Positions 27,693 through 30,247 of a stretch of 50,899 nucleotides of DNA are shown one piece after another (positions within the stretch are counted from its first letter, which is position 1; each line of letters begins with the position of its first letter). The stretch is from contig JABDDK010000007.1 of assembly GCA_013287665.1 (NCBI GenBank), forward strand, positions 1-50,899. The letters are read 5' to 3'. The notes beneath the pieces are model-generated. The model was given only the letters and a program-made list of their open reading frames with translations. It was not told where the DNA came from and did not search any database. The translations under genes were made by a program, and so were the position numbers. Source of the DNA: Alphaproteobacteria bacterium (GTDB lineage Bacteria; Pseudomonadota; Alphaproteobacteria; UBA9655).

Positions 27693-28499
27693 ATGAAAAG
27701 AAAATTAATCAAGAGAACGGTGTGGACACTCTGTTTTGTGCTTGTGGGACTCACTGTATTCTTGTCCTTTGATGCATTTTATGGCGGTCACAATTTTCGC
27801 ACAATGCAAGATAAGATTGCTAAATCAGAGACTGTTAATTTAACGGGTTTAAGAGAAATCAAAGCCTCAGGCGGTGCTTTCCCTCGTTTTCCTTATCTTT
27901 CATGGCAGCTTGGACACGTCAAAGAAGATATAATCATCCTGGATGTGAAGGCAGATTTTCATGGATATATAAAAGGGTTTCCTACATGTCTTCTTGGCTA
28001 CAATCGAAGAGAACCTGGCCTAAGACATATTCCAAGACGACTTGTCTTAACAGGAACAACTGCCTTTCGTCCAGACTTGGTGACTCCAGAAGCTGAGGAA
28101 GCGAAGAAATATGGCTATCAGTATAAAACAGTGGACATTGGCGCCAAATTTATAGCTACACCTGATAAAATTGATGAACTGGTCTCCTTCTTAGATAATT
28201 TACCTAAAGATAAATGGGTTCATGTCCATTGTTCTCATGGGTCCGGCCGAACTTCAACGGCGTTAGTTATGCTTGATACCCTTAGAAACGCACCAAACGT
28301 CAGTTTAAATGATATCGTTAAACGTCAACATCTCCTTGGATCTGTTGATATATTTGATACGTCAGTTTGGCCCGGTGGCACATATACCGCTGCAGAACTG
28401 GAAACGCGGAAGAAATTTGTTGAAGACTTCTATGCCTTTGTTTGTCAAAGAAAAGAAGGTGGAATTCAACTCTGGTCAGAGTGGATAGGACAAAAATAA
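27693..28499 (+). CDS. Phytase-like protein tyrosine phosphatase, paralogue 1
   Basis: A 268-residue Cys-based phosphatase of the PTP-like phytase type. One N-terminal hydrophobic segment (TVWTLCFVLVGLTVFLSF) is a signal anchor or uncleaved signal, so the enzyme faces the periplasm or outside. The P-loop is HCSHGSGRTS with nucleophile Cys180 and the CX5R Arg. It is followed by DIVKRQHLLGSVDIF, which resembles the post-P-loop segment of PTP-like phytases. Other family-like segments are NFRTMQDKI, LREIKASGGAFPRF and PRRLVLTGTTAFRPDLV. AAGGAA precedes the ATG. Substrate could be an inositol phosphate or phosphotyrosine. First of three tandem copies. Confidence 0.82.
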   Translation: MKRKLIKRTVWTLCFVLVGLTVFLSFDAFYGGHNFRTMQDKIAKSETVNLTGLREIKASGGAFPRFPYLSWQLGHVKEDIIILDVKADFHGYIKGFPTCLLGYNRREPGLRHIPRRLVLTGTTAFRPDLVTPEAEEAKKYGYQYKTVDIGAKFIATPDKIDELVSFLDNLPKDKWVHVHCSHGSGRTSTALVMLDTLRNAPNVSLNDIVKRQHLLGSVDIFDTSVWPGGTYTAAELETRKKFVEDFYAFVCQRKEGGIQLWSEWIGQK

Positions 28500-28583
28500 A
28501 ATAAACGTAAAATACTTGCGTTTTCTTTATGATTCTTTTAAACCGTAACTGACATTCTAGCTTTGCTCTTTTGGGAAAAGAAA

Positions 28584-29408
28584 ATGAGAACGTTGTTTCG
28601 AATAAAATATGGTTTGGCTTTATTATTTATTATTGCACTCTCTGCTTTAACATATTATGTGTTTCTTGATGGATACTTTGTCTTTAACTTTAGAACAACT
28701 CAAAATACGATTAGTTCCACAGAGTACGTTGATTTAAAAGGGCTAAATGACCTAAATGCGTCAGGCGGCCCCATGATTAGGTACGACTCTTTAAAAGATA
28801 AACTCAACCCCTTTAAGGGTGAGAAGATCGTTGTTGATGCCATCGGAAGTGAAAGCGGATTTGTTAAAGGCTTCCCTTCTACTTACTTTTCCTATCAACA
28901 GAATCCCCCCGAATGGAGATATTACTTGAGGCGACTCCTGTTTACGGGAACGACTCAAGTGCGCACGGATTTATTCATTCCTGAAGAAAGCGAAGCCCAA
29001 AAATACGGCTTTAAGTTTGTTCAATTTAAAATTGGTAGTAAATTTGCAAGCACTCCAGAAGCCGTCACTCAATTTGTTACTTTTATTGATTCGTTACAAC
29101 CGAACACTTGGGTTCACTTTCATTGTCGGGGCGGAAAGGGCCGAACCACAATGATGCTTGTTATGTATGATATCATGAAAAACGCTCCCGATGTTGCCTT
29201 GGCGGACATTGTGAAACGCCAGTATCTCCTGGGATCAATTGATCTTTTTGATACAACGGCTTGGTCAAGAGGGACATACCGTGTTGAGGCGCTCCAAGAA
29301 AGGAAAGCCTTTATTGAAAACTTTTACGCTTTCATTCATCAAAGAAAAACGGGAGGGATTCAAACCTGGTCTGAGTGGATTCAGCAACAAAAGGTGACCC
29401 CTTCATGA
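28584..29408 (+). CDS. Phytase-like protein tyrosine phosphatase, paralogue 2
   Basis: A 274-residue paralogue of the preceding gene with the same layout: N-terminal hydrophobic helix (YGLALLFIIALSALTYYVFL), NFRTTQNTI, LNDLNASGGPM, the LRRLLFTGTTQVRTDL segment, and P-loop HCRGGKGRTT with Cys181. The segment DIVKRQYLLGSIDLFDT follows. The start is the ATG at 28584 preceded by GGGAAAAG; a TTG seven codons earlier is unlikely. It begins 84 bp after paralogue 1 and overlaps paralogue 3 by 4 bp (ATGA), so 2 and 3 are translationally coupled. Confidence 0.82.
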   Translation: MRTLFRIKYGLALLFIIALSALTYYVFLDGYFVFNFRTTQNTISSTEYVDLKGLNDLNASGGPMIRYDSLKDKLNPFKGEKIVVDAIGSESGFVKGFPSTYFSYQQNPPEWRYYLRRLLFTGTTQVRTDLFIPEESEAQKYGFKFVQFKIGSKFASTPEAVTQFVTFIDSLQPNTWVHFHCRGGKGRTTMMLVMYDIMKNAPDVALADIVKRQYLLGSIDLFDTTAWSRGTYRVEALQERKAFIENFYAFIHQRKTGGIQTWSEWIQQQKVTPS

Positions 29409-30247
29409 CCCGTTCAACACTCAAAGCAAGATGGTTTGTCTTTATTGGAATTCTGTTGATGGCCTCAATTGGCCTGTTTTATGTTTTATCAACAGATGAT
29501 TATACAGAAGCTAAGTTTCGCACCATGCAAGATCCCATAGCGAATTCAGAAAATGTGAATCTTAATGGCCTTCGTGAACTCCAAGCTTCAGGCGGGCCCA
29601 TTGTTAATTTTCCAGAACTCAAGAACCAGCTTAAGGGTAAAGGAGACGTCGTTATTGTCGATGGGATTACGGCCTATCATGGGTATATAAATAACACACC
29701 AACGACTTTTTTTGGATACCATCGACCCCATCCAGATTTACGCTACAAACTGAGACGCCTTCTTTTCACAGGATCAATGGACGTTAATGAATCCCTCGTA
29801 AAATCTGAAAGCGACGTGGCGCGTGACTATGGGTTCGGGTATAAAAATATTAAAATTCACAGCAAAGCGCGAAGCTCCGATGAGGTGATCGATGACTTCG
29901 TGGACTTCATTGATCATTTAGCCCCACAAACATGGGTTCATTTCCACTGCCGTATGGGAAAAGGAAGGACATCAATCATGCTTGTGATGTTTGACATTAT
30001 GCATAACGCTCCACATGTTCCCTTGGACGACATTGTGAAACGTCAACAATTGTTGGGTTCGGAAAATTTATTTGATGTGGCTGTTCGTAAAGTTAAAAAA
30101 GTTTCTCATGATGGAGGTGTTTATACAAAATCTTCACTCAAAAATCGTAAAACATTTATTGAGAAATTCTATGCCTTTATGGCTCAAAGAAAAGCGGGCG
30201 GCATTCAAAAGTGGTCGGCGTGGAATACCGCTACACCAACATCTTAA
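29405..30247 (+). CDS. Phytase-like protein tyrosine phosphatase, paralogue 3
   Basis: A 280-residue third copy: N-terminal helix (WFVFIGILLMASIGLFYVLS), KFRTMQDPI, LRELQASGGPIVNF, LRRLLFTGSMDVNESLV, P-loop HCRMGKGRTS with Cys182, and DIVKRQQLLGSENLF. It has a short extra segment (VRKVKKVSHDGG) after the RQ motif that the other two lack. It starts inside the stop of paralogue 2, with AAGG about 10 nt upstream. The 3' end overlaps the convergent ligA gene by 17 bp. All three end in the same pattern (FYAF..QRK.GGIQ.WS.W), showing recent duplication. Confidence 0.82.
   Translation: MTRSTLKARWFVFIGILLMASIGLFYVLSTDDYTEAKFRTMQDPIANSENVNLNGLRELQASGGPIVNFPELKNQLKGKGDVVIVDGITAYHGYINNTPTTFFGYHRPHPDLRYKLRRLLFTGSMDVNESLVKSESDVARDYGFGYKNIKIHSKARSSDEVIDDFVDFIDHLAPQTWVHFHCRMGKGRTSIMLVMFDIMHNAPHVPLDDIVKRQQLLGSENLFDVAVRKVKKVSHDGGVYTKSSLKNRKTFIEKFYAFMAQRKAGGIQKWSAWNTATPTS

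What the first reader, a model, noticed from the sequence alone, without database searches (positions are those of the whole stretch)
27693..30247. Three tandem, membrane-anchored or exported phytase-like tyrosine phosphatases
Three paralogues of 268-280 residues share an N-terminal hydrophobic helix, a CX5R P-loop (Cys180, Cys181, Cys182) and a following RQ..LG segment seen in PTP-like phytases. From memory of Selenomonas PhyA, the segment before the P-loop carries a general-acid Asp in a TDHTWP context. Here the matching positions read GAKFIAT, GSKFAST and HSKARSS, with no Asp. The set may be effectors or surface enzymes acting on host inositol phosphates or phosphoproteins, or may bind without fast turnover.
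Basis: partly seen in the sequence, partly recalled or inferred. Interest (0 to 1): 0.75.

Follow-up and report, generated by a model that had tools for sequence, protein, structure and literature searches.

The report
Membrane-anchored phytase-like phosphatases lacking catalytic acid
Three neighbouring genes of a probably intracellular bacterium encode membrane-tethered relatives of phytate-cutting enzymes that keep the reactive cysteine but have lost the acid residue such enzymes normally need, a change shared across its genus, where the genes are multiplied in rows.

The parts
27693..28499 (+). PTP-like phytase paralogue 1 (P0001, 268 aa): hydrophobic helix about 9-26, acid position Ala151 (GAK), P-loop HC180SHGSGRT
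   Evidence: ORF; PF14566 43.3 bits against cut-off 27; alignment; helix
28584..29408 (+). PTP-like phytase paralogue 2 (P0002, 274 aa): acid position Ser152 (GSK), P-loop HC181RGGKGRT
29405..30247 (+). PTP-like phytase paralogue 3 (P0003, 280 aa): acid position Ser153 (HSK), P-loop HC182RMGKGRT; start overlaps the stop of paralogue 2
   Evidence: PF14566 51.1 bits; 3f41 E 4.5e-39
28140..28151 (+). acid-loop codons of paralogue 1 (GAKF, residues 150-153): Ala in place of the general-acid Asp
   Evidence: coordinates counted from the translation
29034..29045 (+). acid-loop codons of paralogue 2 (GSKF, residues 151-154): Ser in place of Asp
   Evidence: coordinates counted from the translation
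29858..29869 (+). acid-loop codons of paralogue 3 (HSKA, residues 152-155): Ser in place of Asp
   Evidence: coordinates counted from the translation

Best explanation
The three genes are one tandem array of a genus-specific PTPLP subfamily held in the inner membrane by an N-terminal signal anchor, with the phosphatase domain in the periplasm (inferred). The P-loop Cys still attacks phosphate and the P-loop Arg still binds it (inferred from invariance). No Asp protonates the leaving group; the loop carries Ser (Ala in gene 1) followed by Lys. I propose that they cleave substrates that need no protein acid: phosphoanhydrides, most likely the beta-phosphate of host inositol pyrophosphates, where a neighbouring phosphate can supply the proton, as posited for AtPFA-DSP1. 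Products would be phosphate for the bacterium and altered host phosphate signalling; the paralogues would differ in isomer preference. Shown: family, acid loss, P-loop invariance, amplification, purifying selection among orthologues in relatives. Inferred: topology, catalysis, substrate, host role.
For: PTPLP fold and sequence. Acid position Ser 52 and Ala 1 of 53 against Asp 15 and Glu 1 of the 16 rows outside the branch, while Cys, Arg and Thr of the P-loop are identical in all 80 rows. The Ser column is one of 38 of 272 with at least 52 of 53 identical although median pairwise identity is 48%, so the loop is re-specified rather than drifting. Lys or Arg follows it in 46 of 53. At Cys+2, Gly/Ala (14 of 16 outside) becomes His, Asn, Tyr or Arg in 48 of 53; AtPFA-DSP1 also has a large residue there, Arg152, that contacts the substrate (PMC9038691, section 6 read). 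dN/dS 0.09-0.25 in 25 pairs from 8 orthologue groups of relatives. PTPs named in PMC9038691 as lacking the WPD motif include RNA 5'-phosphatases and the inositol-pyrophosphate phosphatase Siw14. PTPLPs in Alphaproteobacteria co-occur with ATP/ADP translocases: 11 of 43 carriers against 1 of 342 others.
Against: In Bd1204, whose P-loop is close to those of genes 2 and 3, D177N abolished activity (authors' statement, data not shown; PMC3981807, passages), so loss of the acid may mean no turnover. The same list in PMC9038691 also holds CDC25 and PTEN, which cleave phosphoesters (recalled), so lacking the motif does not by itself point to anhydrides. The G-S-K resemblance to AtPFA-DSP1 G118-N119-K120 is not column-exact: hhalign put it one column off, at probability 1.4%, and AtPFA-DSP1's His at Cys+5 is Gly in 51 and Ser in 2 of 53 here. 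Window genes 2 and 3 have Gly and Met at Cys+2, so they do not follow the genus trend. No substrate was tested. The host association is a correlation without correction for relatedness, and no translocase was found in the window's own incomplete assembly (83.7%).
Confidence: 0.37

Rival explanations
1. Natural substrate-trapping or pseudo-phosphatases: the intact P-loop binds inositol polyphosphates, phosphoinositides or phosphoproteins with little turnover, and the arrays sense or sequester host phosphate compounds.
For: Removing the acid is the classic way to make a trapping PTP (established knowledge, recalled); D177N inactivated Bd1204 (PMC3981807); Lys/Arg gained in the loop, and R118 (53 of 53) and R117 (51 of 53) of P0003 gained in the genus, suit anion binding.
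Against: Cys, Arg and Thr of the P-loop are invariant in 53 of 53 and in all 11 sister-group rows; pure binders often lose Cys or Arg (recalled). Multiplication to 2-7 copies with conserved P-loops suggests chemistry.
Confidence: 0.3
2. Ordinary phytases that take the proton from elsewhere: from a neighbouring phosphate of InsP6, a P-loop or nearby His, or a residue that only the structure shows. They scavenge phosphate from InsP6.
For: Full PTPLP fold; 23 of 53 have His at Cys+2, gene 1 among them; several acidic columns are shared with acid-keeping PTPLPs. DUSP23 is reported to use a remote Glu (PMC9038691).
Against: No Asp/Glu column is new to the genus, universal and plausibly near the site. 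The only universal new one (P0003 D170, D/E in 53 of 53 against 2 of 16 outside; also 8 of 11 sister rows) ends the helix that leads away from the loop (topology inferred). The P-loop acid of atypical lipid phosphatases (HCXXGKDR, PMC6409689, passages) is absent: Gly 51, Ser 2 of 53. Acidic columns shared across PTPLPs evidently did not rescue D177N in Bd1204 (inference).
Confidence: 0.26
3. Injected effectors (for example through the type VI system) that act in the host cytoplasm on inositol phosphates or phosphoproteins, comparable in task to XopH. This concerns delivery and overlaps with the other readings.
For: NCBIfam XopH profile matches the catalytic half at 85-99 bits, far under its cut-off of 500; type VI sheath gene in 13 of 16 genomes including the window's; XopH expression lowered InsP7/InsP8 in leaves (PMC5735085, passages).
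Against: A hydrophobic N-terminal stretch was found in all 64 rows of the branch, as in a Sec signal anchor; 12 of 19 genus array loci lie by the mrcA-type gene or the ligA-recN pair; three genomes with arrays (G008, G009, G010) gave no sheath match and two with a sheath (G013, G016) have no arrays.
Confidence: 0.15
4. Decaying or non-functional paralogues.
For: Acid residue lost; 3 of 15 genus genomes have no copy, one of them only 63% complete.
Against: dN/dS 0.09-0.25 in relatives, 38 of 272 columns nearly invariant, intact ORFs.
Confidence: 0.03

Closest known systems
PTP-like phytases (PTPLP, PF14566): Selenomonas PhyA (1u24/1u25), Desulfovibrio (7k67), Mitsuokella (3f41), Legionella LppA (4tvv)
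   Different: General-acid Asp replaced by Ser/Ala; His after it replaced mainly by Lys/Arg; tandem arrays; N-terminal anchor without an obvious cleavage site, though two of the 16 acid-keepers (L078, L079) look anchored too.
Bdellovibrio Bd1204 (4nx8), InsP6-specific PTPLP
   Different: Has D177-H178; D177N reported inactive. Window proteins have S-K or A-K there.
AtPFA-DSP1 / Siw14 inositol-pyrophosphate phosphatases
   Same: PTP fold without an Asp/Glu acid in the loop, Lys in the loop, basic P-loop.
   Different: No family-level homology found (hhalign probability 1.4), His at Cys+5, loop Lys one column off.
XopH (NF041348), Xanthomonas type III effector phytase
   Same: Catalytic half aligns at 85-99 bits; about 31% identity over about half of gene 3's protein (listing only).
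   Different: Below the family cut-off; the paper marks catalytic WPD-loop residues and mutates H239. N-termini were not compared.

Membership tests
PTP-like phytase (PF14566 PTPlike_phytase) | Profile match above the curated cut-off | tested here: met
   43.3, 45.1 and 51.1 bits against 27; matches cover only profile positions 90-158 of 158
PTP-like phytase (PF14566 PTPlike_phytase) | PTPLP fold | tested here: met
PTP-like phytase (PF14566 PTPlike_phytase) | HCX5RT P-loop | tested here: met
   All three window proteins; C, R, T in 80 of 80 aligned rows
Classical-mechanism phytase | General-acid Asp in the loop before the P-loop | tested here: not met
   Ala, Ser, Ser; Ser 52 and Ala 1 of 53 in the genus
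Classical-mechanism phytase | Hydrolysis of InsP6 | not testable with these tools
   needs enzyme assays
XopH effector (NF041348) | Score above the equivalog cut-off of 500 bits | tested here: not met
   85.3, 97.7, 99.2 bits
PFA-DSP / Siw14 inositol pyrophosphatases | Sequence membership in the family | tested here: not met
   No Pfam match to such a family among those listed at E 0.1; hhalign probability 1.4 against AtPFA-DSP1 and Siw14
PFA-DSP / Siw14 inositol pyrophosphatases | Loop without Asp/Glu acid, with intact CX5R | tested here: met
   property of PFA-DSP from PMC9038691
Inner-membrane signal-anchor protein | N-terminal hydrophobic helix with positive residues before it and no obvious cleavage site | tested here: inconclusive
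   Hydropathy scan in 53 of 53 genus rows and helix 2-27 in the model of P0002; cleavage judged by eye, no signal-peptide predictor was available

The most novel reading that the evidence does not exclude
Intracellular Alphaproteobacteria turned a phytase into a family of membrane-bound inositol-pyrophosphate phosphatases by removing its general acid, arriving independently at the acid-free chemistry of plant and fungal PFA-DSP/Siw14, and multiplied it to read or rewrite the phosphate signalling of their eukaryotic hosts.
Probability: 0.2. Interest if true: 0.82.

Novelty: new variant of a known kind. Interest (0 to 1): 0.58.

Why it matters
How PTPs work in the complete absence of the loop acid is called a deeply puzzling situation in PMC9038691. 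Here is a clade in which a well-understood enzyme family lost that acid and then multiplied under purifying selection, with acid-keeping relatives for comparison, so the question becomes directly testable. If the substrates are host inositol phosphates, it would also add a way for intracellular bacteria to act on them.

Tried and rejected
Rejected: unrelated Cys phosphatase family; defence function (PADLOC no match at E 0.01 for three of three). Not supported: VirB4-type export (PF03135 no match in 16 of 16); phage carriage (no relative confirmed in one scan of viral contigs with gene 3's protein, which finds close relatives only). Promoter and terminator scans of 27400-30400 gave no more sites than shuffles. 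Literature searches for acid-less PTPLPs gave none that I recognised: (0 papers; 21 of 22 listed; 13 of 14 listed), titles and starts of abstracts seen. (15 of 70 listed): the word phytase occurs in none of the 15 listed papers on Holosporales/Rickettsiales. Searches served the PTP and inositol-pyrophosphate background. A search by MAG names found none. AtPFA-DSP1 is not among the 50 structure rows shown, which excludes nothing.

Rows dropped before counts: L038 (a different DSP), L095 and L096 (P-loop-only matches), two partial ORFs, and duplicates of rows already held, before the tree of 80. The three groups counted were set from the loop state together with that tree; they coincide with its branches (53, 11, 16). 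In the 2x2 table I counted only PTPLP matches stronger than 1e-20 (12 of the 14 genomes; G177 and G242 dropped) and TLC matches stronger than 1e-80 (43 of 54 genomes).

Full report

THE MISSING ACID. In the HMMER alignments the PhyA loop (ATDH) aligns without gaps with the genus sequence (IGSK) (for gene 3 itself). The window reads GAK, GSK and HSK. I took stretches around the matches in genus members and outside relatives and aligned the encoded proteins. In 53 array proteins from 12 genomes the acid column is Ser 52, Ala 1 (the first window gene); in the 16 rows outside the branch (5 Bacillota, 2 Bdellovibrionota, 1 Chlamydiota, 8 Alphaproteobacteria) it is Asp 15, Glu 1. P-loop Cys, Arg and Thr are invariant in all 80 rows. 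The Ser column is among 38 of 272 columns with at least 52 of 53 identical, while median pairwise identity is 48%. After it comes Lys 38, Arg 8, Thr 4, Gln 2, Ser 1 (outside: His 12 of 16). At Cys+2, Gly/Ala (14 of 16 outside) gives way to His 23, Asn 11, Tyr 9, Arg 5 and others 5; the three window proteins have His, Gly and Met there. I looked for a substitute acid. Of the columns with D/E in at least 60% of the 53, most are shared in part with acid-keeping PTPLPs or are not acidic in one of the three window proteins; the only one that is universal and rare outside (P0003 D170; 2 of 16 outside) ends the helix after the loop and, by topology, lies away from the P-loop. The P-loop acid of atypical lipid phosphatases (PMC6409689, passages) is absent too.

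HISTORY. A quick tree with the loop columns removed puts the 53 genus proteins on one branch (SH-aLRT 100) and joins them with 11 more alphaproteobacterial proteins (SH-aLRT 99), apart from the 16 acid-keepers. These 11, including two further arrays (G002, five genes; G123, three in tandem and one on another contig), have scrambled loops, three with D/E at the column. Copy number per genus genome is 2 to 7 in 12 of 15 draft genomes; three have none, one of them 63% complete; G007 has one further, divergent member. In 12 of 19 genus array loci the array lies by the mrcA-type gene or the ligA-recN pair, as in the window (gene families), so the position is probably old and copies came and went. 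dN/dS in 25 pairs from 8 groups of close orthologues in relatives is 0.09-0.25; the window's own genes have no orthologue close enough to test (best identities 63, 51 and 60%).

WHERE IT SITS. All 64 rows of the branch have an N-terminal stretch of 18 residues with mean hydropathy 1.8-3.2, positive residues before it and the conserved Arg soon after. By eye, about half of the acid-keepers look like cleavable signal peptides instead, but two (L078, L079) look anchored and two rows lack their true start. I infer an inner-membrane anchor with the domain in the periplasm, close to the membrane.

WHO CARRIES IT. The window is part of an unnamed 1.58-Mb draft, 83.7% complete. Its genus mates are uncultured 'Alphaproteobacteria bacterium' or 'Proteobacteria bacterium' MAGs, matched by equal contig lengths. 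ATP/ADP translocases, typical of bacteria living inside eukaryotic cells (established knowledge), are found in 15 of 16 genomes searched in the order, not in the window's own draft. In 385 Alphaproteobacteria, 11 of 43 genomes with a strong translocase match carry a PTPLP, against 1 of 342 others, that one being the window's own draft (Fisher 1e-10, relatedness not corrected). In 398 genomes drawn across the phylum only the window's own had a full match; four others had weak P-loop matches.

HOW IT MAY WORK. In Bd1204, whose P-loop is nearly that of genes 2 and 3, D177N was reported to abolish activity (PMC3981807, passages), so these proteins should not be classical phytases. PMC9038691 (abstract, sections 2, 6 and 8 read) lists PTPs lacking the WPD motif: among them RNA 5'-phosphatases and Siw14, but also CDC25 and PTEN. 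For AtPFA-DSP1 it shows that inositol pyrophosphates are cleaved with no protein acid identified, the substrate being posited to supply the proton; its loop holds G118, N119 and K120. The window loop G-S-K is similar in kind, but hhalign sets it one column off at negligible probability, so this is an analogy, not homology. I judge acid-free cleavage of phosphoanhydrides the most likely (0.37), substrate trapping next (0.30), a hidden acid third (0.26). Delivery is a separate question: a type VI sheath gene is in 13 of 16 genomes without tracking the arrays.

NOVELTY. I found no report of PTPLPs lacking the general acid, and no phytase mention in the 15 listed papers; the library holds open-licence papers only. 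It is a new variant of a known family with untested function.

Noticed in passing
27601-27618, 6262-6279, 6394-6411: An 18-base GC-rich, partly palindromic element (GCGAACGCGGGGATCCAG) occurs exactly three times in the window, once just upstream of the array and twice as an inverted pair; 0 of 100 shuffles reached three matches even with 3 mismatches allowed.
   Followed up: partly
25988-26854: Gene near the array is a Kdo hydroxylase (PF11004, E 5.8e-111), a lipopolysaccharide-core modification; one genus mate (L034) has a homologue beside its array.
   Followed up: no
26966-27442: Divergent 158-residue protein with a signal-peptide-like start and no Pfam match at E 0.001.
   Followed up: no
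36435-37255: Xre/MbcA/ParS antitoxin and RES-domain toxin pair, adjoining.
   Followed up: partly
L055:8013-8915 (G001): Another genus of the same family has a single PTPLP that keeps Asp (VADDRPP) and has a signal-peptide-like start: a natural comparison.
   Followed up: partly
L054:2978-7739 (G002); L087 and L100 (G123): Two further tandem arrays with differently altered loops, often with a Trp and acidic residues after the acid column, possibly separate loop solutions.
   Followed up: partly
G000:C42:1103-2038: Type VI secretion sheath gene (VipB) in the window's genome; 13 of 16 genomes of the order have one.
   Followed up: no
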